From assembly GCF_000003815.2 (NCBI RefSeq), contig NC_049988.1, forward strand, positions 5,358,065-5,422,064: a DNA stretch of 64,000 bases, given 5' to 3'. Source of the stretch: Branchiostoma floridae (Eukaryota > Chordata > Leptocardii > Amphioxiformes > Branchiostomatidae). The notes below the pieces were generated by a model. It saw only the letters and a program-made list of their open reading frames with translations. It was not told where the DNA came from and searched no databases. The translations under genes and the position numbers were made by a program. Below, piece by piece: positions 12,618-55,589 of the stretch; the stretch's first letter is position 1; each line of letters starts with the position of its first letter.

Positions 12618-13776
12618 TTAGTGTTGGGGCAAGCTCTGGGACAAGCTGCTCTGTGCCATGGCGGTTCGCATGTTACCAGTCATGATAGGGTAAGACACCA
12701 AACCCTGCTGCGCGACTGAAGCGATGGCCTGTGCCACAGACACGGGCAAGGTGCTACCTTGGTGGGAAATGGGGATAGCTGCTGCAGAGGCGGCGGCGGC
12801 GTTAGGCCCGGACAGCAGGTCCTGGGCGAGCCCTCGCGACTGAGCTTGGTTTAGGGATGCGCTGTTGAGCTGCGTTACGCTAGGTGCCTGTGGAATCTGT
12901 GGGTTGGTTACGCTAGCATGGCTGATGGTGTGCGTGATGGCTTGGGAGATTATACCGTGGTTATAGTTAGTGACGGGGAGGTTTTCGGAGCGAGGCGGGG
13001 TGCCGGACCGCTGCAGCGCCCGCTCGGTTCGGTAGCGTGCGTTCTGCTCGAGCAGGACTTCGTTGGTCGCCTGGAGATCGGACACCTGCTTCTTCAACTC
13101 GTCGATCTTTCTACGGAGCATGATGTTTTCGTCTTCAAGGAATCGGTAGTCCAGAGGGCGTGGCCGTGGAGGTTCGTAGTCGCGTTCCCGTTCACGGTAG
13201 TCGAAGTCCAGGTCATCTCTGCGTCGCTTCAGCCGAAGGCGATCGTACTCATAATCATCGTAGCGGGGTTCGTACGAGTCGTACCGAGAGGTGTAGGACG
13301 GCAGGGGTGGCTCCGGTGCTAGTGAGTCACGTGAACTCAAGGGATAGTCGTACTCATCTTGGGCCATATGGCGAAGACTTACACTTGGAACCACGGTGAC
13401 ACTCATTCTTCAGAAAGTCACGGCCAATTGGTATGTCTCCGCCCCCCAACGATCCGCCGCCGTTACTAGCGCCTAACCCAAGCATTCCAGCCCCTACGCC
13501 GCCCGAACCCACGCCTGTCTGCTTCTGTAGACTAGACGGCAGCTCTCCAGTCTGCTTGTAGAAGTCCTCTTCTTCCCTTGTGCAGTGGATGAACTTGCAG
13601 TTGTTCCTATCACAGCCCTTGTTCTGGTAGTCGTGACAGAAGGCGTAAGATTGCTTCTGTTGGCCACCAGCACCTTCGCCCTCGTCGGGATGGCGGTACT
13701 TGCACCGCTTGCCTCGCCGGCAGACGTTCCGCAGAAAGTCGCGGCAGATGTCGTCGTCCTTATTCTTATCACTCAT
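12618..13776 (-). CDS. ZC3H10: ZC3H10-like CCCH zinc-finger protein (single exon, one frameshift)
   Basis: Starts MSDKNKDDD at 13776; an in-frame TAG lies a few codons upstream. Finger 1 is ICRDFLRNVCRRGKRCKYRH and finger 2 CHDYQNKGCDRNNCKFIH, followed by a GELP..LQK linker as in vertebrate ZC3H10. Finger 3 is damaged: its first cysteine is Gly (GGC at 13423-13425), and one extra base (G at 13376, C on the coding strand) shifts the frame just before the final histidine. Without that base the segment reads CKFRH and the gene is 385 codons plus stop. The second part has a Tyr/Arg/Asp-rich region, a coiled coil (FLEDENIMLRRKIDELKKQV, then DLQATNEVLLEQNA) that closely matches ZC3H10, and a Ser/Ala/Gln-rich tail. 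Known members are RNA-binding proteins with a regulatory role. The human coding region is also a single exon. The frameshift may be an assembly error or an allele. Confidence 0.85.
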
Positions 13777-14120
13777 GCTGCGGCCTTTTAACAGCTTCTA
13801 TCTGTATTCTTACGAATGACAGGATATGTCTTAAATAGGTAGAGGTCCTGCTTATAGACTAGTGACCTAGCAGTCTTACTCAGCAGTCGCCTCGCTAAGG
13901 AGCAATCTACGGGACTTTTCGACGCCACCTGAAGCTACACGGCAGGCTGGGAAACTTCGCTGCTGCTGGCGCCGCTTTCGCCGCTTGAACTCTCGCGCTG
14001 GGATCCTCACTTCGACTTTGTCGCCCTGTCAGATTCCGCTTTGAGCTGCAAAAAGGCAAAACGAACTTGCAATGTACACTATAGCGTCTGTCAACGTTAG
14101 AATAGAAACAAATAAGCAAA
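13777..14120 (-). promoter_or_regulatory. Presumed 5' UTR and promoter of the ZC3H10-like gene
   Basis: The stretch upstream of the start codon has a CpG-containing, GC-richer core at about 13900-14040. I see no TATA box at a convincing distance. The call rests on position and base composition only. Confidence 0.3.
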
Positions 14121-15754: not shown

Positions 15755-16130
15755 CCACGTACGTAATTATAGACATATGTGCAATGTCACGTGTCAAGGG
15801 CAAACTAGTAAGGATACTTACATCAGTGAGACAGAACATGCAGTGAAAACTAGGTTCTCGAACTTCAGCGTCTAAGTTCTGTTAACTCCAAGGTGTCACA
15901 ACATATACACCTAGAGTCTCTGGGACATTCTATTTCTTTGGACAAAGTCAAAATCATAGATTCAAAACTGTATTTCTTTGCGCATGGCGTGAAGGAGGCA
16001 GTGTACATCAGAGCCTACTGGCCCACCCTCAACAGAGACGGGTGGCGACATAGACTTTCTGATAATTATGACCCCTCCTGCAAAAGTGGTCTGTTCCTGC
16101 TGGAGATGGAAGGGTCATTCAATCTTTGAA
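15755..16130 (+). mobile_element. Degenerate Penelope-like element: GIY-YIG endonuclease end
   Basis: Across two frames the translation gives CQGQTSKDTYISETEHAVK, then SQHIHLESLGHSISLDKVKI, then GVKEAVYIRAYWPTLNRDGW. This is the order seen in the GIY-YIG endonuclease module of Penelope-like retroelements: YIGET core, downstream arginine, GVKEA helix and PTLNRDGG end. The copy is dead. YIGET reads YISET, the usual glutamate before GVKEA (FFERGVKEA type) reads FFAHGVKEA, and a frameshift lies near 15865. Confidence 0.7.
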
Positions 16131-27000: not shown

Positions 27001-30000
27001 GTGGGTGTGGGTGTGGGGGTGGGTGGGTGTGGGTGGGTGTGGGTGTGGGTGTATGTAGAAGACCAGCATAAGTTGATGAGTCCTCGAAGCAATTTTTGGG
27101 CCCTAGTGGCTTGTTATGATACTGCACTGAAACTTCCAGGTTTGATATCTCGAAATCTGGACATGCTGTGGCTATAATTTTGGAGTGGTAGATTGTTCTT
27201 GAGGCAGAGAGTAAGTCTTATAAATTTGTGTCCCCTAGCAACATGTTTTAAAACTGCAGGGGCTGGTTTAGAGTTTGAAGGAGAATAACTCAAGAAGGGG
27301 TTTATAGATCATCATGGTTTTTGGTATGTAGACAGCTTGAGTGACGCTTCACATAGTTCAATATTGATTATGCAAATTGGAAAATAATTTGCATAATTTA
27401 TCAGGAAACTGTCTAAACCTGTTCTGTTCCATTAAAGGACTGTTGCAACACGTGACATTGTAACTGAGAAAGAGAAAAATATTGATACTTTAGATAAGTA
27501 TTATGCAAATAAAGACCTAATTTGCATTATTGTGAAGAAAATGTTGTAATGCACTTTGTTGGTAAATGGCAAGAATTTCATACTTCTGGCATTTGGAAGT
27601 TATGTACATGTGAATGTCATTCAACATTTATTATGCAAATGAGTATCTCATTTTCATACCTTTTCAGAAATGTGATTAAAGCCTTTTTGAGTGTGACAAA
27701 TGAGGATCTTATTTGCATAATCAATGACAAAAATAATTAATATATAAGGTTGAAATCATTTGTCAAAGGTATTTCATTGAAAACTTCAAGTTGGTACTAT
27801 TCAGTACAATTTGTATATGAATTATCCCATAGGAACATTATAATTTCAGTCCAAGAAATTAATATGAGTACCAAGAATTGTGGTTGTTTGGTCTCTAAGT
27901 CCTATATTAGCTTATCAGGAACTCAGCCAAACCAGTCAATTACTATTTGTGAGCCGTGTTTATTCAACCTATGCTAAACTCAAGTTATGTATAATACTGT
28001 AACAGTGATGTTCGAGTACCGCCTATCGTCCTTGCCCAAGGGCACTAGTGTTTTTGTAGCGACAGCAATAGCGGTCATGACTTGTAATCTGCCGACCCCG
28101 GTTCGATCCCGGGTAGGGGGCATGTTGTTTCTTTCTGTTCTACTCGCCCCTCTGGTTGTTTCACTGGTTCCCACACCGGGAATCGAACCCGGGCCTTGGC
28201 GGTGAGAGCGCCAAATCCTAACCACTAGACCATTTTTTTTCATGCTGATCTAGCAGAAGAGGGCTATGTATCATCAGTTTTATAGCCAAGTTCAAACATA
28301 ACAACCTGAAATGGCCTTGTGTAATATTAGCAATCAGAAGTGGAGCCTATAGGCTGCACAGAAAGTTGAATTCACTGTCAACTGTTAAACTGTAGATGAA
28401 AATTGTGCTTTTTTGAGGAACGAAAAAGAAAATTGACTACCGGTAGTAAGTAAAATTTTGACATATATGTTCATTGATGTCAACAGAGAGACTACTAAAA
28501 CATTTATTAAAGATCATGATGATGATGATGAAATTTGTAACATTAAGAATGCTGTTTTAAGTATGTGTTCCTTGGATTACAATTGGATTGTCAGTGTTTA
28601 TGTTCATTGTTATCTGTAATTTCTCAACTTGTTGACAGGCAGTCTGTTCGCTGTTCGCAAGGCACAACAATCAAGTGTGGCACCCCTTGTGGAAAGAAGC
28701 TGAACTGCAGCGTACACACCTGTGAGGATATCTGCCATGCTGGAGACTGTCAGCCATGTGCTGTTATCCTAACTCAAGGTAGGAATTATGTGACAAAAAA
28801 TACAAAGTGCCAAATTCCAAAAAAATATGAAAAGTTCCTTTCAACATACCACAATGGAAATATATTGAAACTCATCCAGTACAATTTTACAAAGGCAACC
28901 TAAGCCAGCTTTTTTCGAAAGCACTTGTTTATCAACAGCCTGGATGGAGATCTACAAAAAGATATACAAAATTTAATGTAACTGATATCATCATGTAGCC
29001 AGACAACATTGACCAATCAAAAACTTTCTGGTGTAGCAAATTGAAGGTCATTAATATCCCATATACTACCTGCATCCGGGGTATAGGTCCAGGGTATTGT
29101 CAAACATAAGTGAGTAGAGGAATCATTACAATGCTGGGAACGAGAGCCACAAAATGGCGCACAGTTCACAAAGACGAAAAAACGTGCGAACAAAACGTGA
29201 CTGAGATTTTATCGGCCAGCCACTGACATTTCAGAAGGTTCGAAAGGTAGAGAAAGCAAGAATCCGCCCCGGCCCGCAAGGAAAATGCCGCTCCGAACAA
29301 AGTGGATCCCATCTCTAACTGATATATAAGCTAACGGTGCTCTGTAGGGTAAATATAATGTGCTCGCGGGAGCTGAGTCATCATGGCTCGATATATGAGA
29401 ATGTCTATATGAAGATAACATCCCATAATCCCAGAAAGGAGCGTCTAAGTCTGCGTAACAGAAGAGGTGGTTTATGAGGTGGTTATAGGAATAGGCCATG
29501 AATTATGGTACAGTATACACCTGAAGGAGGGTCATTATCCGTATATAGTATTAGTGACATGCAAGGTAATCTAACATATCGGCGTCGGGCTACATGTACA
29601 TTGTACATGAACATATCATGATTCATTTTGGTTTTCACTATTTTTTGTACAACACGTCATGTACATGTATATTTTGGGCAGTGTTCCGTAACTTTGTTAA
29701 TGGGACTCGGATAGAGAGAGAGAGAAAGATGAAGAGTTCTCTCCATCATTGAGGACCACCCACTGAAAACATATCTGCAGAGTATATATTTGTCCCTGAC
29801 CTCAGACTGCACTTATAAACCTAAACACACATGTGTACCCAACATATGAAAACTTCACTCCAAACCACGTACATGTTACAATATATATTTCTAGTTTTCG
29901 TGAGTTCACTGATTGCCCCCGTTTACGGTACACTGTAAGTTTAGTAACCTCTGCCTCCCTGCTGACAATTTCTAGGGCTATTCTAAGCAGTGTATCCCTT

Positions 30001-33000
30001 GTCGGTTCCATTTTTGCTGTGAAGTTGATCATGATAAATGACTGCAGGGTCACCTTGTCTGCAATGTCATCATTTGTCACAGCTGTGAGGTCAGCCTGAT
30101 CCCTGCAGCTGTCTACTATCATCATGGTATCTCTGGTACCCGCATTTATGGTTTAGTCTTTAGCTGATGATTGACCCAGAAATCCCCGGATTGACCTTAA
30201 TGTTGTCTTGTGGTGTATATCTGTATCAAATTCAAGATATAATGTAATCAATTAAGGGTATAGGGTAAAAATACAATATGTGCTTGCCAGTCTTATTAAG
30301 TAACCCACATTTACAGACTACATTAAATTGTTTATCCCACCAATATACAATTGCAACATTTTTGTATTATTATTAACAAAAATAGTACCATAATGATTGT
30401 GTAATTAATGACTATACCTGTCATGACGTTACGGTTAACTTGCCAGCTTGTTGGAAACCTGGCACCATGGCTTTGAAAACTTTATTTGATAAGCAAACTC
30501 ATTTAGTGATTACATGTACATACAATGAAAAGACTTTACAATCAACTTTCACAAATTTTAAAGTACTGTACAGTGTACATTGTATGCTGTGAGCAGCAAA
30601 GATCCATCCCGGCTGCCAATGTTCATTGTCATGACAAGTACATCTGTATGATAATAACCTGATTGGAAGTATCAAGACTTGGAACATACAATTAAGGTAA
30701 CATCAGAAGGTGGTATATTTTGTGTAAATGTTATTTAGCAATTTGGTTGAATGTGATTTCAGGGATTAAAAAAAAATTATTTTGGTGTCATAAACACTTT
30801 TAAGTTTGGATACATGTGTATGTAACAAATGTATTGTCTTTGCACTGTGAAGTATTTTTGAGCTCTAGGTACATTATGTAAATGAGTTTTTATGTTCCAG
30901 CTTGTTACTGTGGCAGGGTAGTCAGGGAAGTGGTGTGTGGGGGTGAGGAGTGGACAGGGGAGGATGTGGATGGGGACGGGAGCAGCTTTTCCTGTAAGAA
31001 TGTATGTGACAGGTAAGTTTGCTCAATGACAAGTTTTGTCTGAAATGTATGTTCTATTTATTGTTAAGTGGTCTGAGATTCACAGGGACTGCTGAAAGTG
31101 AGAAAAAAATGCAAAGAATGTGTATAGAAGCCCCCAAATTATCTTTGGACTATTCCTATGCAGGTTTTGTAATATGAAAATTGTTCCTTCCCCCTCTGCC
31201 TGTGACAGAGAACTAGAGTGTGGACATCACACCTGTGAGGAGCTGTGCCACAGCGCCCCCTGTCCACCCTGCCCCAAACTGCCATCACAAGTCAAGTTCT
31301 GCTGCTGTGGCCAGACCACTGTGGACAAGCTGGAGGAGCTTGGGGAAAATGGCAGCCGCAAGACGTGCTTGGATCCCTTACCAACCTGCAGAAAAACCTG
31401 CAACAAGCCTATTGGTTGTGGATCTGATGGTATGATATATGAGACAATGTCACATATTAATTAAGAGTNNNNNNNNNNNNNNNNNNNNNNNNNNNNNNNN
31501 NNNNNNNNNNNNNNNNNNNNNNNNNNNNNNNNNNNNNNNNNNNNNNNNNNNNNNNNNNNNNNNNNNNNNNNNNNNNNNNNNNNNNNNNNNNNNNNNNNNN
31601 NNNNNNNNNNNNNNNTCATGTCACCATGCATTAGGTCATGCAGACTTAATTTATGACGTCTGCGCTCGTAAAAAATTGGGACCACATGTCAACTTCTAGC
31701 ATCTATGGTCAATTAGAATTCTATGCTTGCCTGAGGATCTGCTCTCCAGGGGGCACATGGTCAGGGCATGGGGCCATACTAGCCTCCTTAAACAAGAATA
31801 GCAATAAAACATTAACTGAAATGTTGATGATTGTCTTACATCTGAGTGAAATGTTTGTTTCCACAGAGTCTGACGAAATCCACTTGTGCCAGAAGACCTG
31901 CCATGCAGGGAAGTGTGGGCCTTGTGAGGGGACTACAAAACTCACCTGCAGATGTGGATGGAAAACTCAGGTCAGATTAGGAGTTTTGTTTGTTTCATCA
32001 AGAGATTGCTGATGTTCCAAATATCCTCAGGCTGTAGTTTCTTTCGATAGTCTGCAGGACTTTTGTAGGATAGCTCGCATGATTATTTAACCTTACCTTA
32101 GACCTTAGGTCCTCCTATAAGGTAAGTTAGTTTCCATCGGCACCTGTCGGTTGATTATAACTATTGTGTAATGCAATTGGCAAGGCCAAAAACGTGGTGT
32201 GAGACCTAGTCATGCGGGCCTCCCGACAAAGCATGCATTTTTGATTTTCTTTCAGGTAATCTGTTCAGTTGTAATGAGAACGTAGCAAATAGAGTTTACA
32301 TTTTACAAACCAATGGTTCTTCGCATAAAATTTGTACAGATTGAACATAAGTTACACAAACACTGCTCCTAAAGGTTACTTTGAGGTCATTGAAACAGAA
32401 AAAAAACACCATGCACTGTATTCTCTTACTGCCAATATATGGAAAAATGTTCACGGTTGTTTTAAGTTCGCGGTGAAGCAGCCACCGCGAAAACTGTGAA
32501 CATTAAACCACCACGAAAGTTTCTGCATTTACAGTATATTAAAGTCTCCGGTCCTAATCCCGCCCCATTCCCAATCCTGAACTGCGATATGCATGAGTGT
32601 CCATTCATGATACGGACCCGTGACAGTTGACTAAGTTACTCTCTTGAGTACCACAGGGTAAAAACATTTGTTTCAGTTAGTAAGCACCAACAACCAATGC
32701 CTGAAAATTTGCTTAAATGTAACCGCTCTGCGGGGAGCTGAGGAGCGAACAGCTCACGAACATGGCCGTCAACATCGCAGAGTAATTCAGTGTAGAATAC
32801 ATTAATATCCCTGCATGACACCATATGTATAAAAACATGTAGTGATAATTAAACTTTACAACGAGCTACACTTTTGTCATGCCGATATCTTTCTTGCTGG
32901 ATAATCGAAGCTAACACGACATGCGGTTTTTCACACATCTCCGGTTCGGCCATTTTTATAGATCACGTGATTCAAAGTCATGTGTTGCATGTAAACACAA

Positions 33001-36000
33001 CACGGCGTCAATTCTGTTATGGACTTATCACACCACACCGGTTGGCGGCATGAAAAGACTGAGAGAGCTCTGTTTACAACAGAAAGATAGTTATCAAGTT
33101 TTTCAATTAGTTTCAGAGTTTTAAATGCTTGACAAATGGAAATAATACTGACAGTGACTGTAGTTGCATAGTTCTCAATTAGGGCACACATTTTTGTGAT
33201 GGAACGTTCCACAAGCAAACGAACCAAAAACCATCTCCAGCTCACGTGTGATGTAACGCAAGTGACGCAAAGCGCATCACTTGTTAAAACACACGTCTGT
33301 AAAGCTTTAATCTCGGTTATATGTACAGTATAAGAATGAAGCTCACTGAATTGTAAATTCAACAAATGCACATTTACAAAATGTGTAGAACATAGGTTGG
33401 AATTAGGACCGGAGACGTTAGATAACACATTCTCATTTTCTGGGTCAACCTCACCTCACCTCACCGGTCAACACTGAATTGTAAATTCCAACAAAAAAAG
33501 TTGGACTAAGCCAGATCCATCTGCAGTCTTCTTCATGGAATCCACTGCTGTAGAATCTGTGATGCCATGTTCTTCAGTTCAACTTTGAGACAGAATGACT
33601 TCTACCAAGAGAATACAGAATGATGAACTTTTAAGTTTAACATTCTTGTATCAGATTCACAGTGTATTCATATCATCAGTCTGCTATTAATTATATCACC
33701 ATGACATTGTCCTTAGCTTGTAAGAACATAGAATTTAGGGTACAATGAAGGTCATTTATTCACTAATGACTTTCATTCATTCAGTCAATTTGTATATTTA
33801 ACATGTGAGTCAGACGTCATGTTGAATAATTGGTGTTTTGTATTTTCTCAGGAACTACCATGCAAAGATGTCAAAGGTCGATCAGGTATGGAAATATTTT
33901 GGTGTGTCTAGATCTAGTGTTGTAATAAACAAACACATTAACAAATCAATAACTACTATATCTAGTTGTAATGACTAAATTCTGGAACATTTCTGCTGTA
34001 GATAGCAAAATGAACATCCAATTAGTAATAACATTAAACTTATTACCTCCATGAAATGTCATGGAGGTTATATTTTACCCCGCGTTTGTCTGTGTGTCTG
34101 TGTGTGTGTGTGTGTGTAAACAAGATAACTCAAGAACGGCTGGTTTGATACTTGGTGTGTTGGTAGGGTGTGATGAAAGCTGGAAATGATTAGATTTTGG
34201 GCCCCCTAGCAGCTCCCCTTGGTACTGCAGCGCAACTTCCGGTTTTGCTATTTTGGTGTTCTGAACATGCTATGGTCACGATTTTTGAGTATTAGATAGC
34301 TCTTGTGCTCAGGAAGAAGTGACACAGTTTGGGCCCCCTAGCATCTAGTTTTGGGATAGCAGGGGCATTTTTGTCAAAAACTTCTGAAGATAACTCAAGA
34401 AAGGAACAACGGATTTTCATGATTTTTGGTATGTAGGTACCTCAGACAATGTTGTACAAAATGAAATACTAATTATGCAAAATAGGAGCAAATTTGCATA
34501 ATTAATGACAACATTCCATCATAGCAGTTTTTTCTATGTATCTCTTGTCTTGGACGTGATATGGTCTTGAAATTTAGGTGGTAGATAGCTTTCAGTGTCA
34601 TGACAAAGTGGGGCAAGTTTCAGCCCCCTAACATTTAATTTGGGAACTGCAGGGGCGTTTTTGTCAAGACATTCCAAAGAGGATAACTGCAGAAAGGATT
34701 GACGGATTGGTATCATATTAGGTATGCGGGTACCTTAGGCAAAGATGTTCATAATGATATACATGTTATGCAAGTGAGGACTTAAGCAGGGGCATTTTTG
34801 TCAAGACATTCCAAAGAGGATAACTGCAGATAGGATTGACGGATTGGTATCATATTAGGCATGCTGGTACCTTAGGCAAAGATGTTCATAATGATATACA
34901 TGTTATGCAAGTGAGGACTTAATTTGCATAATTAATGAGGAAATTGTATAATTCCATTGTTTGCAATAACTGGACTTCAATAAATGTAACATATGTTAAT
35001 TATGATAGGTGGAATATAAGCAGATATCAAATATGGTAAAAATTGCAAAACCGCTTTATGATTAATAATGGGAATTTTATAATTGTGACATGTGTATGTT
35101 TGTCAATGATGAACAACACCATGCATAAATTATGTTAATGTCTTAGTCAATTGCATGAAATTTACGAAAGCTCTAAATTTTCATGGAGGTATGAGGTCGC
35201 CGAACTCTAGTTAAATATATACAATGCTATTAGATTAAGACAGTGTATAACTATACACCAACAGGTAAACGGAACAAATTGATCACTTAAAACCAAGCAG
35301 AAATGATATATTATATGAAAAATACTATTCTCTCAATGTTATATATTTGTAAACCCCAGCATAACTGTCGACGTCCATGTTTTCAGTGGAAGACGAATTC
35401 CTGTGTGACAAAAGGTGTAACAAGAAACGGAAGTGTGGGCGGCACAAGTGTGGACAACCCTGTTGTGTGGTAAAGTTTTCCACGAATGTAACTTCTTGGC
35501 AGTCAGATTTGAAAAAGCAATCATTTATAATGGTTAGCTGGATTAAAAGAATGGAAGGGGGAAGTCATTTCTTAATCTTCCATTTTGGCTTTATAATGCC
35601 TAAGAACAAGGAAATAAATTGGTTCAACCTTAGAGTCCATTCCAAGTCACCATGAGGGTTTTTAGGTGATGTTTGTAATTAGTCTGAATTATTTTGAATA
35701 AAAGAATATCTGAGCCACAATAATTAAATTCTTTTAAAAAAATTGACTAAGAAAATACTAATCTATTTGAATTCCTTTGAAAGTTGGCAACTGCACTCAT
35801 GACTTCCATAGTGATGCCACTTTTACAACTATCCAACTATAGCTTCACTTCAATAACTACAGTCACTGCTACCTCGCTAGTGTCATTTCTACAAGTACAA
35901 TCAGTACACACAACACATTTTTCCCATTTTGATACTTTCTTGTCACGTTGACCATCTCCGAAGATGAAAAAAAAAAATTTTTTTTTTTCTGAAATCAGGC

Positions 36001-39000
36001 GAAAATTAATGAGCGCGTGGATGTCATCCATAAAATTTAGTTGTGGCCTTAGCTGGATTAAAAGAATGGAAGGGGAAAGTCATTTCTTAATCTTCCATTT
36101 TGGCTTTATAATGTCTAAGAACCGAGGAAATAAATTGGTTTTGCCTTATGCACTCTCTTGTTGTACAATATGATATGTCACAGTAGAACAACACAATACA
36201 CTTTTATTTTTGGTAGAAGATTTTTTTTTTCTTGCAATTTAATTAGAATTTTATATTATTTCAACATTTTGATATTTCTTATTAGACTTAACATTAGATT
36301 TGTACTTGCTTCAACTAAATTTTTTTAAAGGTTTAAATGACCAATGGTCTTGTGATAATAGTAAACTAAACAAATTTGGCAGGACTAATATTTCTAAGTC
36401 TTGCAAGAAGAAGAAATCCAGGCCTGTGAGTCGTGAGTTTTGATGTTTCTGTCTCCCTGCAGGAGTTAGATCACACCTGTCCGTTTGTGTGTGGCAGGAA
36501 GCTGAGCTGTGGTTTACACAGGTGTGAGCAGCCGTGCCACCGAGGGAACTGTGAACCTTGCTGGCAGACAAGTGAGTTGTGTAGCTGGCAGCTTTCAAAA
36601 TCCTTTTATGGTTGCAAGTTGGGAAAATTTTACATGCAATTAAAAAAATTTACATGCAAAATACACACAGATGGTTGGGGGACATCTAGATCTACCAAGC
36701 CTCTTGGCTAAATTTGTCAATTAACAGCCAACACACATGCAATATGTTTGTTTGTTTGAACATTTGTTTATTCATTGTCCATGGGGCTTGCATTTTACCT
36801 GACAATTTGTACAAGACAATGAATGATGTTTTACTGACAATGCTGTAAGTGAGACACTTTGTTGCACACACAGGTTTCGAGGAGTTGTACTGCCACTGTG
36901 GAGCATCAGTTCTGTTCCCCCCGGTACCCTGCGGCACACCTCCCCCAGAGTGCCACCGCATGTGTTCCCGTCAGCACAGCTGTGAGCACCAAGGTAAAAT
37001 AATGCAGGCTAGCTAGGGGCAGGCTACTTATTGTGTTACAATGCAATTTTCTAAGTGTGTTGTTAAGTATAAAAATCACAAAAAAAAACAAAACAAGTCA
37101 CGTTCTGAAGTTTACACACAATAATCAACATTTGTACGAGTCTATTGTACAAACTGTATACAAGTTTGTACACTCTAACTTTGTGCACTTTACCCTGATA
37201 CTGGACATAGCTCTTTTGTTGACTGTCTTTCCGTGACCCTCCCCGCCTGTGAGCTTTCTGAAGGAAAATATGACTGGTTCATACTGCACTGTACATATGC
37301 TGTAAAGTATTTACTGCTCCCCTTCAGTTCAACACACCTGCCATAGTGATGACAAGTGCCCTCCCTGCACCTTCCTCGTACAGAGGAAATGTATGGGGCA
37401 GCATGAGGTAAGACTTGGATATATTTTACAATCAGATGACACTGTTGAATAATGCTTTACATTTGTCTGAATCTATAGCCTCCAGAATTGTCTGTGTCTG
37501 TTGGAGATTGCATGTGGGCTTTTTTGGCCCAGTAAAGTCTTAACCAGAGTATACATATATGAAGCCTATAGCAGTGACTCTACTGGTCAGGCCCCAAGAA
37601 GCTTGATAGTACATACATCAATGACCGAAGGTCGGGACCAGGCTAGTACATATTTCACTCCATAGAGGCCTATCTACCATAGCTTTAACTTCTCAAAATC
37701 AATATCAGAGTCTCTAGTTAAAGTGTCCGTAAAAGTCAAACTTCTGCAATGTACCTGGCCACTCGGTTTCCGAAGGGCAGAGGAAACTATTTCCTGTTTA
37801 GCTCGTCAGCTTCTGAGATAGCTGTGGAAGTCCTCCATAAATTGTATTAAGTGTAGCTCCATGCAATAAAAGATACTGTGTAATACAGGTATGAACCAGT
37901 TTCCTTTTACAATCATGACAATGATCTCTATCTTCATTCCAGTTGAGAAACAATGTGCCTTGTCACATCACTGACATCTCCTGTGGACGACCCTGCAATA
38001 GACTCCTCCCCTGTGGTGTGCATCAATGCCTTCGCATCTGCCACAAGGTTAGCTATTGGCTGTCAGAGCTACAATAATTATGCTTGACACTCATCTCTAT
38101 TCCTTTGTATATAAGTGTCAGGCTTTTGAAAAAAAAATGGCATTGCAGCCAGGTCAGAATGGGCAATACTGTCTCCTTTATTACTTTTTTTTAGAGAATG
38201 ATTGGAACCATGATTGGAACATTTCTTAAGTAATTTTTAATGCCATGGAAAGTACTGTAAAAAAATATATTTCATATGTATTTGTTTTCTCTTGCAGTTA
38301 CTGTTACAGTAACAGAACATATTAAACTGACTTCTACAAACAAATTTTGCAGGACCATACACTGTGCAATCATTCCTACTGATGGTTCACTGCTCACCAA
38401 TTCACATCTGCTATCTGCATAATGTGACCTCACAGAAGCAGTTGATTGCTAATTCCTTGTCCAAGACAAGTTGGACAATGAAAATTTTTGTGTTGGAATG
38501 TACAGTTCAACTAACTCTGCTTCTGAATGCTGAACATTGCTGTGTTGGAGCTAATGTTTATGTTGAACATGCTGTTCTGCTGTACTTGCAGGATGAGTGT
38601 GTGAGAGAAGATCAGCCATGCGAGCAGCCCTGTAGTAAACTTGTTGTGTTGGAGCTCACACATTGATGTTTATGTTGAACATGCTGTTCTGCTGTATCCT
38701 TGCAGGATGAGTGTGTGAGAGAAGACCAGCCGTGCAAGCAGCTGTAGTAAACTTGTTGTGTTGGAGCTCACACACTGATGTTTATGTTGAACATGCTGTT
38801 CTGCTGTATCCTTGCAGGATGAGTGTGTGAGAGAAGACCAGCCGTGCGAGCAGCTGTAGTAAACTTGTTGTGTTGGAGCTCACACACTGATGTTTATGTT
38901 GAACATGCTGTTCTGCTGTACTTGCAGGATGAGTGTGTGAGAGAAGACCAGTCGTGCGAGCAGCTGTAGTAAACTTGTTGGGTTGGAGCTCACACACTGA

Positions 39001-42000
39001 TGTTTATGTTGAACATGCTGTTCTGCTGTACTTGCAGGATGAGTATGTGAGAGAAGACCAGCCGTGCGAGCAGCCCTGGTAGTAAACTTGTTGTGTTGGA
39101 GCTCACACACTGATGTTTATGTTGAATATGCTGTTCTGCTGTATCCTTGCAGGATGAGTGTGTGTGAGAAGACCAGCCGTGCGAGCAGCCCTGTAGTAAA
39201 CTTGTTGTGTTGGAGCTCACACACTGATGTTTATGTTGAACATGCTGTTCTGCTGTACTTGCAGGATGAGTATGTGAGAGAAGACGAGCTGTGCGAGCAG
39301 CCCTGTAGTAAACTTGTTGTGTTGGAGCACACACACTGATGTTTATGTTGAACATGCTGTTCTGCTGTATACTTGCAGGATGAGTGTGTGAGAGAAGACG
39401 AGCTGTGCGAGCAGCCCTGTAGTAAACTTGTTGTGTTGGAGCACACACACTGATGTTTATGTTGAACATGCTGTTCTGCTGTACTTGCAGGATGAGTGTG
39501 TGAGAGAAGACGAGCTGTGCGAGCAGCCCTGTAGTAAACTTGTTGTGTTGGAGCACACACACTGATGTTTATGTTGAACATGCTGTTCTGCTGTATACTT
39601 GCAGGATGAGTGTGTGAGAGAAGACGAGCTGTGCGAGCAGCGCTGTAGTAAACCTCGTCAGGAGTGTGGGCATCCGTGTGGTGCACCTTGCCACCAGGGC
39701 ACTCTCTGTCCCAGGACTCCCTGCAGGGCCAAGGTGATTGGTTTTTACCTCTCATTTCTTTCATTATTAGAATCTCCACAGCAGAATAATTGCCAGTTGT
39801 ATGCTTAAATTAGTTTAAAGATTAGTGTAGTCAGGAAATGCTGTGGTTTCGTATCGTTATAATATCAATGAACCCCCAACCCTACATGTACTTGTACAAG
39901 TAGTTTGTCTAGTTCTTATTGGAGCACCTGGCATTTGCATAATCAGTCTGCTGAAAAACTTTTGTATCATTCTATAATTTATAAAGTGAAGAAAAAAAAT
40001 GAAATGAAGGTTTTAGATATGTTCTACATGCATAATTTATAATATATTGTATAGTCTGTTTAGTTATTCAAGACCAGAAATGTTAGCATAGTTTCATGCA
40101 GATATGTGTAATTTTTTTATAACTTTTTGAACAAAATTGCAACAGAATGGATGGGATTAGGTAAAGGTAAAGGTACAAAATATATGGCTGTCCTTTTTGT
40201 AAGAAAGGTTTATGTCAGATGTCACTGAAGATCTTATCAGGATTAGGATGTCAAATGTGTACTAGCTCCAACAAATACAAATTGTACTCGAGACTTTTGT
40301 TCTTCCAAACAGTTGGACATTTGTATCAGACTGGTGTATTTTGTGTGTTGTGTATATGTAAGACTTACATGATATAGCCTACATGTATATAATGCTCATA
40401 ATACATAATATTTTGTGCTGACAAGTGAAGTTGGTGGATGTTTTGTATTGTCAGGTGACAGTGAGGTGCAAATGTGGATTGAGGAGTGAAAAAGTACAGT
40501 GTAGTGAGACCCAGCTAGAACATGCCTTCCAAAGGTTGGACATTCTACATTTTTGAAAAACTTGTAAAATTTTTGTATAATTATACAAATCATAAATCTT
40601 TAGGGCCTGTGGCAGATGTTTTGTGTTTCTGTTTTGTTTTGAGATATATTGAACTTCTTACTCTTTGCTATACATGTAGTTATAACATGCCTGAAGATAT
40701 ATCCATCTTTGTAGAATTGTGTGAAACTTGCAATTTTCGATGCACAACTAAAAAAAGACAACTGGCAATCCGTGTTTTCAAATACTAATTGCATTATATC
40801 ATAGTTTATAGATGTTGTGTTCTCTTCCCTTTGAGTACCCTTTGATTGCAGCTTTACCCTGTAGAGTCTTTATTATAGAAGAATAAATTAAACCATCATC
40901 ATGACATCTTAATGCTTTCTGATGAATATTTCAGACTGACCACTTCCACCCTGGCCACACGGTGGGGAGACATGCAGGCTGGACAGTCAGTGGACATCAG
41001 TGCCCTGGTCAAGATGGGCAAAGACGGCAAGAAAATCTTGGAGTAAGTGGACCTTAATCTGAATTTTCTGTATCAGAAACAGGGCTTTAGCCAGCTCGAA
41101 ATTTTTTTCCGTCAGCCAATTACAATCGTCGCGAAAACCGTGAAAATTAATTAGAAGGACTGAACTGAGACCTTGAAAAACGGGTTTTAATGAGATTATC
41201 GTATGCGAAAGGGCACCGACACACATTGTCAACAATCATAACAATAGCAAAACAAACAGTGTGTGGCTTTACGATATTTCAGACTGACCACTTCCCCCTG
41301 GCCACCGGTGGGGAGACATGCAGGCTGGACAGTCAGTGGACATCAGTGCCCTGGTCAAGATGGGCAAAGACGGCAAGAAAATCTTGGAGTAAGTGGACCT
41401 TAGTCTGAATTTTCTGTATCAGAAATGTTTATTAGTCTTGACCATGTTGATAAGATAAAATAAAAGTTCATAAATAAGTCATTGTTACTTCAACAGTATA
41501 GAACTTGGAAGACTGAGGTTGTGAAGCTTACAAACTGGGTTCTGCTTGGCACAGAAATTTCACTCATATTTTCTGCATTGTTTTCCATTTCAGAAATCAT
41601 ACATACATTATTGTATGCTGTAAAACTATCAAGTTGGCAATGCTTGGAATAGTCTTGACTTGTATCACAATCATTCTTTCTTCATTTCCTTCCTCTTTAG
41701 ATTGGACTGTACTGAGGAGTGCGCAGTGTATGAGCGAAACAAGTAAGTTAAACTTTAATTTGTAATGTAATGAAGGGGTAGGGACTGGTGCATGGTACTG
41801 GTATACAAAACAGATATGTTTTATTAATGGACTGTTAAAAAAATTTTAAAAAACTACTAGTAGCCATGCCAAAACAGAAAGAGCTGATTGTGAACAAATC
41901 GTATGTTTTGTAACATCTTGGTTTTGTTTTTGCATAATAGTAATGTACTTCTATAATTCAAGCATAATTTGTAGCATTCAAAGAGACTTAGTCCATTACA

Positions 42001-45000
42001 GTTGTGTCTTTTTCTCCAAAATAGAATATACTGTATTTACTATCATACCTAATCCTCTGGACCTTGACTTGAATTTTCCATACCTACCCACCACTATAGT
42101 TAAGAGTTGTTAGTGTGATCTTTTTATTGTACTTGGTACTCTTGCTGCTAAAAAAGGGTAAAAACATCATCACCGCATTAGGTTCATTATTTTGATTAAC
42201 ATTAACATTGCTGCTAACTTCAAACCTCACTCAACCTCTGACACAAACTGGTACATTCCAAAGACTGACCCCAGAAGGTACTAAAGCCAAATGTATCTAC
42301 AGACTCAAATGTGAAGAACCCAACTTCAACAGTACGTATATTGGTGAGACCAGCTGGACACTAAAGGCAAGGTACAAAGAACATTGCAAACCCGGCACTA
42401 ACGGCTGCTCCTCTGCCATTTTTCACCACCTAAAACACAACCGGGGACACTCTTTAAATCTCCAATCCACCGATATCCTAGACCGCAAACCCCACTGTTT
42501 GGAACGGGGAGTCAGAGAGGCTTTATATAAGAGAATATACAATCCCACCCTTAACAGGAAGGGGGACCTTCGTATGGAACTATCAGGTACTTGGGATCTA
42601 GCACTACCCTCAGCTGCCTCCCACCCCTGCCCCCACCCCCACCCCCACCCCTGCGACAAACAGTCAGCTCCTGTGATTCAACAACAGGAGCTTATTAACT
42701 CAATTGCATCGACGTAGTCTTAACTCATCTGACCGTTTCCAAAATCATATCCAGTTGTTTGTAATGAGTAACTGCTTTTTGTAGAATCTCTATGTCTTAA
42801 ATTTGTTAAACCCATGTTTAATTCACCCTCTTTTCAAGCTGGTTGCTAGCTACACGTAATGAAGTTCGCAACAGGGATTTAAAATGAGGGTTCGAGCTTA
42901 GCATACCTTTTACCAGATATACAACAGGTACAACAACAGTGCTATTCCATACTTGATAACACGCTTAAATACTGATTTTAGTCAGTGTCACATTATCACT
43001 GAATGGTAATGTAACCGTTGATAAATGCTAATTTTAGCTTTGGTGTGTATCCATTATTAATAAGTAATACTATATTATGTTGTATGTAAGGTTGCTAGAC
43101 TAAAACTAACTTGATTCAGGCTGAGCCATTTTTACAGCAAGGTTGCAATGTATATTATATGTGAATAAACCATTCTAACTTTATTATCTGTTTCGGTTAT
43201 AATAATTTCAGGAGACTGGCCATGGCTCTGCAGATAGAAAACCCAGACACGTCTTCCAAGCTGGGACCACCTCCTTACACAGAATTTCTCAAGGAGCAGG
43301 CCAGGTAATATTGGACAATGTGATACTAGTAGTCACCTAGCACAGAAAGTTTGAGTTGTATTTACATGTAGGTCAATCATATCTCTGGAGTCAATGCATT
43401 ATCACAATATTACTAACCCTCTAGACTAATTCTAACAATCTTTATTGACAGAACTTAAAGTACATTATATGTCAATAATTTTGTAAAGTCTAACAGCAAC
43501 AGTTGCTGTCATTTGCATTTAGAATATATTTATTAGATATTGATGTCTTTTTTTGGGGGAAAATATAGTTTTAATGATAATGTTGGTAGCATGGAATTAA
43601 TGTCTACTAGTCACTGGTCACTGTGTATTGGCAGCATGTGCTGCTAAATATACGACATTTGAAATAAAGCTTAAAAAAACACTACAGATATGGATCTTGT
43701 CGTTTAATGAATAAAAAACCAAGAAGAAAACCAACCATAGCTGCCATTGTTTCCCAGTGGGAGTGTGGTCGTTAATGTGACAGTTGAGCGAAAGCTCCAT
43801 TGATCCGTCACACTCTAACATACATTTTGTATGATTTGTACCATAAGAAATCAATTTGATTTTTGGAAAATTCCAAACAAAAGGTACAACAGTTTTTCCT
43901 TTCTGCAGTAAAAACAAGAGCCTTGTGTCATCGGTTGAGGATGCTCTAACTAAACTGGTCCAGACTGCAAAAGAGGTGAGTTTGACCCATTTGTTGTCAG
44001 AAATTGGCATATTAACTCAATTTTTTTAAATGTACATGATGACCATTCAGAATTAGTATTGACCATGNNNNNNNNNNNNNNNNNNNNNNNNNNNNNNNNN
44101 NNNNNNNNNNNNNNNNNNNNNNNNNNNNNNNNNNNNNNNNNNNNNNNNNNNNNNNNNNNNNNNNNNNAGGAATCATTTCCATGTTGAAAATCACTTTTTT
44201 TTAACTTTTCTTAGTCGAAGCAAAAGAGTCGTAGCCACCGCTTTTCCGCCCATGAAGCGGGAAGATCGCAGAGTGATCCATGAACTGTCGGAGTTCTATG
44301 GTATTGAAGTGATGAGCTACGATGTGGAACCCAAGCGGAACTGTGTGGCCACAGCTTACAGGTGGGAACTTTCCAATGAGCTACATGTATGCATGCATTA
44401 CAACCTATATTATTATTAATGAAATTTATCCTGCATTCTGTCCTGGTATGATTTGGACTTTCTTATTATGATCAAAAGTGTGGAGAAGTTTTAGCATAAG
44501 GTCACAGTGTAAACTTTATGGATGACATCCTGTGCAGAGTCTCCAAATTTAATGAGATGGGGTGAAAAAAAAAAACAATATGCCTTGGGTAAAAAAACAT
44601 AATAGCTAGATTTTCAAAAGATGAGTTACAGACGTTTTCAAAGATAATTGTAAATTGGTTTTTAATTTTGTGGCCAACACTGTATCTAAATACATGACTG
44701 TCACAGTGTAGTGTCACTGCTACAAGAACAATCAAATTTTTTTTTTTCCATTTCGATACTTCCATGCCATATTCATCATCTCTGGAGGGGAAAAATTATC
44801 TTTTTTTGTGTCAAAATCAGGTAAAAATAGAGTGCGCTGCTGTCATCCATAGAATTACTTGCTGTGGCTTAAGGAATACTTCTACTTGTTTTCTATTTTT
44901 GTTTGGATCCATGACAGTCTCTATTGTATTTGAATTTAATACAATAGGTGAAAAAAAACAAATGGCAAGTTGGAGATATACATGATGTAACCCTCCATGT

Positions 45001-55469: not shown

Positions 55470-55531
55470 ACACATAGGCCTCTTAAAAAGAGTGTTTTAT
55501 ACACATAGGCCTCTTAAAAAGAGTGTTTTAT
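55470..55531 (+). repeat. 31-bp perfect tandem duplication
   Basis: ACACATAGGCCTCTTAAAAA followed by GAGTGTTTTAT occurs twice in a row (55470 and 55501). Confidence 0.95.
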
Positions 55532-55589
55532 ATACTCAGAATGTTTCAGTGTTTGGCTGTAATCGGAGAAGTTGTAAATATTTGTGTAG

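What the first reader, a model, noticed from the sequence alone, without database searches (positions are those of the whole stretch)
38530..39733. Ten tandem 3' splice sites with truncated copies of NFX1 exon 17
Nine units of 110-115 bp, each carrying the end of intron 16 with a good TTGCAG acceptor and the first 44-48 bases of exon 17, precede the one complete exon. Any truncated copy spliced in would bring a stop codon. The array therefore offers a row of decoy acceptors or poison exons in front of a coding exon, a possible splicing-control or decay switch, or simply a minisatellite that captured a splice site. The complete exon has an Arg codon (CGC) where most copies, and vertebrates, keep Pro.
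Basis: partly seen in the sequence, partly recalled or inferred. Interest (0 to 1): 0.75.

Follow-up and report, generated by a model that had tools for sequence, protein, structure and literature searches.

The report
NFX1 intron-exon boundary minisatellite ("mirage")
In an NFX1-like animal gene, the stretch joining the end of an intron to the start of the next coding exon is repeated ten times in a row; this looks like a known quirk of lancelet genes called a "mirage", and the nine false splice sites are probably ignored.

Summary
Ten near-identical units, 110-115 bp apart, each carry a TTGCAG acceptor. Nine end in a copy of only the first 47-50 bases of a coding exon; the tenth leads into the complete 129-base exon. 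The gene is NFX1-like. Each of the nine upstream acceptors, read on to the real donor, meets a stop after 4-24 codons.

The poison-exon or decay-switch reading has little support: no unit holds a donor that would close an exon longer than 7-11 bases (rough recalled matrices), and the RNA fold is unremarkable. The anatomy matches published amphioxus "mirages", minisatellites spanning an intron/exon boundary in Adh, troponin C, globin and PGBD5 genes. The papers seen report differing copy numbers and, for Adh, troponin C and globins, no disturbed splicing.

The most interesting point: the real acceptor and first 49 coding bases lie in the most alike end of the array (units 7-8 against 9-10: 2 mismatches in 201 bases), so coding sequence seems to turn over with its decoys. 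A new member of a known kind. Species, allele length and RNA use could not be tested.

The parts
38533..38553 (+). Intron sequence at the left edge that resembles the tail of the repeat unit; likely the 5' end of the founding duplication
   Evidence: Unit 3 matches 38533-38552 at 90% over 20 bases, E 0.17, weak on its own
38554..39564 (+). Nine complete repeat units (starts 38554, 38666, 38778, 38890, 39000, 39113, 39227, 39339, 39453), each with the intron's 3' end, a TTGCAG acceptor and the first 47-50 bases of the exon
39565..39604 (+). Unit 10: intron 3' end with the presumed real acceptor (last base 39604)
   Evidence: acceptor score 3.94, lower than 8 of 9 decoys and equal to unit 8
39605..39733 (+).
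   Evidence: Open in frame between exons 16 and 18; no Pfam match on its own
39734..39739 (+). Presumed real donor GTGATT
   Evidence: Score 3.63
37943..38047 (+).
   Evidence: Open frame; NF-X1 finger match below the cut-off, 15.1 against 22.7 bits
40455..40534 (+). Next coding exon downstream
   Evidence: Joins exon 17 in frame (one search had its start one base off)
28639..44362 (+). Span of the NFX1-like exons recognised (zinc-finger exons, then R3H)
   Evidence: 4 of 7 finger-region exons scanned pass Pfam's zf-NF-X1 cut-off, 2 are below it, the array's exon has none; the R3H exon passes. Exons at 36874-36993 and 40455-40534 were not scanned; orthology by tree was not tested

Best explanation
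It is an amphioxus-type 'mirage': a minisatellite born from a tandem duplication of about 112-114 bp that spanned the 3' end of an NFX1 intron and the first ~49 bases of the next exon, later expanded and homogenised, probably by unequal exchange or slippage. Shown here: the ten-unit anatomy, a stop behind each of the nine decoy acceptors, the lack of a strong donor inside the units, and the close likeness of the last four units, the real boundary included. Inferred: splicing joins exon 16 to the tenth acceptor because only that one has a good donor at normal exon distance (129 bases), and the decoys go out with the intron.
For: Ten units, TRF score 1870. Left flank, intron part and exon part are all local sequence, and the unit matches nothing else in the window. 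PMC3087553 section 16 (read in full) describes the same anatomy in globin gene BflGb6: tandem copies of an intron's 3' end plus the next exon's 5' part, units of 150-160 bp, 6 and 3 copies in two haplotypes, with the statement that Adh3 data and globin RT-PCR suggest no interference with regular splicing. PMC3902484 (passages) adds PGBD5 (108-bp and 60-bp repeats over splice sites, differing in number between two assemblies) and cites Adh and troponin C. Units 7-10 group together and unit 1 has the longest end branch, as in a homogenising array with a less homogenised edge.
Against: No RNA was seen. The decoy acceptors are not weak: 8 of 9 score above the real one (5.30 or 6.25 against 3.94) and one ties, so the choice of the tenth rests on inference. 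3 of 9 presumed real donors score as low as or lower than sites in the units. PMC3087553 itself says that repeats with splice signals could serve as cryptic sites, and in PGBD5 a gene model annotated part of the repeat as an exon, without EST or mRNA support. Tree support is 92/93, under the 95 mark, and the bootstrap had not settled.
Confidence: 0.85

Rival explanations
1. A regulated decay switch: upstream acceptors are used at times, the extended exon carries an early stop, and the mRNA is degraded, lowering NFX1 output; array length would set the dose.
For: 9 of 9 decoys bring an early stop; 8 of 9 decoy acceptors score above the real one; no decoy has lost its TTGCAG.
Against: No strong donor in the units; four units folded as RNA are ordinary, z -1.40, 10 of 100 shuffles as stable; variation is not significantly lower in the acceptor part (2 of 40 columns against 12 of 75, p 0.13); in the published mirages splicing is reported as undisturbed.
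Confidence: 0.06
2. Assembly artefact: the number of units is inflated or two haplotypes are run together; the real array is much shorter.
For: Runs of N at 31469-31615 and 44068-44167 show a gapped assembly; in PGBD5 two assemblies gave different repeat numbers.
Against: All ten units differ from one another, so they are not one read copied over; PGBD5 repeats stood up to re-sequencing. The own-genome search that could show a second haplotype did not complete.
Confidence: 0.07
3. The truncated boundary makes an NFX1-91-like short product: a stop just after exon 16 removes the last part of the finger region and the R3H domain.
For: Human NFX1-91 shares the N-terminus and centre with NFX1-123 but lacks its two additional finger-like motifs and R3H domain (PMC8067315, passages). 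Decoy use here would end the protein before the R3H exon.
Against: The human short form has a lysine-rich end; the decoy ends read are not. Early stops upstream of further introns usually lead to decay (general knowledge). No polyadenylation signal was looked for.
Confidence: 0.02

Closest known systems
Amphioxus globin mirages, BflGb6 and BflGb9 (PMC3087553, section 16 read)
   Same: BflGb6: tandem copies of the intron's 3' end and the next exon's 5' part in front of the complete exon; splice signals kept in many copies; homogenised units with distinct edges
   Different: Here NFX1-like, 110-115 bp and ten units (BflGb6: 150-160 bp, 6 and 3 duplicates in two haplotypes; BflGb9: the exon's 3' boundary); no second haplotype and no RNA seen here
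Lancelet PGBD5 repeats (PMC3902484, passages)
   Same: Tandem repeats of 108 and 60 bp over splice sites, number differing between two assemblies
   Different: Fewer, less alike copies; position relative to the exon differs
Adh3 and troponin C mirages (cited in PMC3087553 and PMC3902484; original papers not seen)
   Same: Duplicated splice sites without aberrant mRNA, as cited; somatic length instability at Adh3, as cited
   Different: Adh3 units 10-72 bp as cited
Intron gain by tandem genomic duplication (discussed in PMC3087553; PMC4974935 seen in a search listing only)
   Same: Tandem duplication that copies splice signals
   Different: No new intron or exon is shown here; the copies lack a good donor
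Poison exons and tandem alternative acceptors (recalled)
   Same: Extra acceptors that would bring a stop
   Different: No good donor in the units, young near-identical copies, no evidence of use

Membership tests
Amphioxus mirage | Minisatellite-like tandem copies that span an intron/exon boundary | tested here: met
Amphioxus mirage | The complete, authentic boundary stands at one end of the array | tested here: met
   Unit 10 leads into the complete in-frame exon
Amphioxus mirage | Concerted evolution with edges left out | tested here: inconclusive
   Units 7-10 group (support 92/93, bootstrap not settled) and unit 1 has the longest end branch, but the 3' edge is among the most alike units
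Amphioxus mirage | Lies in a cephalochordate genome | not tested
   Species not given; search of the own genome did not answer
Amphioxus mirage | Unit number varies between haplotypes | not testable with these tools
   One haplotype on hand
Amphioxus mirage | Regular splicing is undisturbed | not testable with these tools
   No RNA data
Poison exon | Inclusion brings an early stop | tested here: met
   9 of 9 acceptors, read on to the real donor
Poison exon | Own donor that closes an exon of usual size | tested here: not met
   No GT of 1.5 or more between 38154 and 39733; GTs 40-55 bases into the units score -1.75 to -8.76. Rough matrix: 3 of 9 presumed real donors are under 1.5
Poison exon | Regulated use in RNA | not testable with these tools
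   No RNA data
NFX1 gene | NF-X1 type zinc-finger exons followed by an R3H domain on the same strand | tested here: met
   4 of 7 finger-region exons scanned pass the Pfam cut-off; R3H passes. NFX1 rather than a paralogue was not tested by tree

The most novel reading that the evidence does not exclude
The coding exon is a working member of the minisatellite: the real acceptor and the first 49 coding bases are renewed together with the decoys by unequal exchange, so a mostly non-coding array feeds amino-acid changes (Gln-Pro against Glu-Leu) and acceptor changes (a two-base TA insertion that lowers its score) into a conserved zinc-finger protein, differently in each haplotype.
Probability: 0.3. 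Interest if true: 0.5.

Novelty: new member of a known kind. Interest (0 to 1): 0.3.

Why it matters
It adds a large and clean case, ten boundaries in an NFX1-like gene, to the short list of published lancelet mirages, which have been proposed as raw material for new introns (PMC3087553). It is a natural test of how the spliceosome picks one of ten near-identical acceptors, the more so as the presumed real one is not the best by score. If the coding exon shares in the array's turnover, it shows how a repeat can push changes into a conserved protein.

Tried and rejected
Regulated RNA structure: four units (450 nt) fold with z -1.40, and 10 of 100 shuffles fold as well.

Selection keeping the acceptor part: 2 of 40 columns vary against 12 of 75 in the rest, p 0.13, not significant.

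Other mirages in the window: ten exons with 120-base flanks were compared with the window at E 1e-3; only the array's exon had copies of its boundary. The one other non-self match was a 56-base repeat in the flank of the exon at 35387-35469; the two R3H hits both lay on the self diagonal, which a run of N splits. More diverged copies would be missed.

A dispersed or transposed source: unit 3 matches only the array and its left edge within the window. The rest of the genome was not searched.

Print: 8 paper searches were answered. (NFX1, Branchiostoma, tandem repeat) put papers with 2 of its 3 terms first, so none in this open-licence library held all three. I saw no paper on an NFX1 mirage; subscription papers are mostly not held.

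Full report
Observation. Tandem Repeats Finder reports 38554-39653, period 112, 9.8 copies, 95% matches. Ten TTGCAG acceptors end at 38591 to 39604, 110-115 bases apart. In units 1-9 the exon copy ends at AGTAAAC, 47-50 bases in, and intron-like sequence follows; in unit 10 the exon runs on to 39733, where a donor follows.

Gene. On the + strand, 4 of 7 finger-region exons scanned match the NF-X1 zinc finger above Pfam's cut-off (28640-28777, 31210-31428, 31869-31970, 36463-36567). Two are below it (35389-35469, 37943-38047) and the array's own exon has no match. A later exon (44165-44362) matches R3H. Exons 16, 17 and 18 join in one open frame, and skipping exon 17 (129 bases) would keep the frame.

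Consequence of decoy use. Joined to exon 16 and read on to the real donor, the nine upstream acceptors meet a stop after 24, 13, 13, 13, 14, 4, 24, 24 and 24 codons.

Can the decoys act as exons? By a recalled human-like matrix no GT between 38154 and 39733 scores 1.5 or more; the real donor scores 3.63. The best site in each unit lies 7-11 bases after the acceptor: 1.18 in units 5 and 7, about -0.56 in the other seven. GTs 40-55 bases in score -1.75 to -8.76. Against this, 3 of 9 presumed real donors of the gene score 1.20, 0.71 and 0.17, so the matrix is a rough guide. Acceptor scores do not favour the real site: 3.94, against 5.30 or 6.25 in eight decoys and 3.94 in unit 8. The eight other presumed real acceptors score 0.63 to 8.55. 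If the tenth is used, as I infer, it is because it alone has a good donor at ordinary exon distance.

History. The tail of the unit resembles intron sequence just left of the array (90% over 20 bases, E 0.17), as a tandem duplication of local sequence would leave. Units 7-10 group together (support 92/93; bootstrap not settled; no branch reached the starred mark) and unit 1 has the longest end branch. Positions 39227-39427 (units 7-8) match 39453-39653 (units 9-10, with the real acceptor and first 49 coding bases) at 199 of 201 bases. A two-unit duplication would explain this, though units 8 and 9 also differ only by a two-base indel, so single-unit steps are possible. Units 1-3, 5 and 6 have CAG-CCN (Gln-Pro) where units 7-10 have GAG-CTG (Glu-Leu); unit 4 has CAG-TCG. 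The Arg codon is in the complete exon alone. From one haplotype the direction of exchange cannot be told.

Literature. PMC3087553 (section 16 read in full; other passages) describes mirages in amphioxus globin genes: 6 and 3 units in two haplotypes of BflGb6, 81-100% identity, homogenised units and excluded cluster boundaries. It says that Adh3 data and globin RT-PCR suggest no interference with regular splicing, while allowing that repeats with splice signals could serve as cryptic sites. PMC3902484 (passages) adds PGBD5, cites Adh and troponin C mirages as not giving aberrant mRNAs, and reports a gene model that calls part of the repeat an exon without EST or mRNA support. PMC8067315 (passages) describes the short and long human NFX1 forms. 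The Adh3 paper was not held under the DOI tried.

Verdict. Most likely a mirage in an NFX1-like gene, inert for splicing: a new member of a known kind. What keeps it above trivial is its ten units, a presumed real acceptor that is not the best by score, and coding sequence caught up in the repeat's turnover. Species, true copy number and RNA use remain untested: the own-genome search did not answer in nine tries, and no RNA data are on hand.

Noticed in passing
38993-39809 (- strand): Two open frames of 192 codons run antisense through the array, probably because the repeat has few stops on that strand.
   Followed up: no
34649-34922: A 137-bp sequence present twice in tandem (97% matches) in an intron of the same gene; no exon was recognised in it.
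   Followed up: partly
35534-35589 and 36049-36104: A 56-base repeat, 98% identical, within the same gene.
   Followed up: no
12621-13797 (- strand): A gene with CCCH zinc fingers (Pfam zf-CCCH matches); it looks like ZC3H10, a name recalled, not tested.
   Followed up: partly
42196-42714 and 15854-16126: Open frames that look to me (recalled) like remains of a GIY-YIG endonuclease of Penelope-like elements; no Pfam match at E 0.1.
   Followed up: partly
55470-55532: A perfect tandem duplication of 31 bp.
   Followed up: no
38297: A lone TTGCAG acceptor-like site in the intron, outside the array, scores 6.30, above the real acceptor.
   Followed up: no
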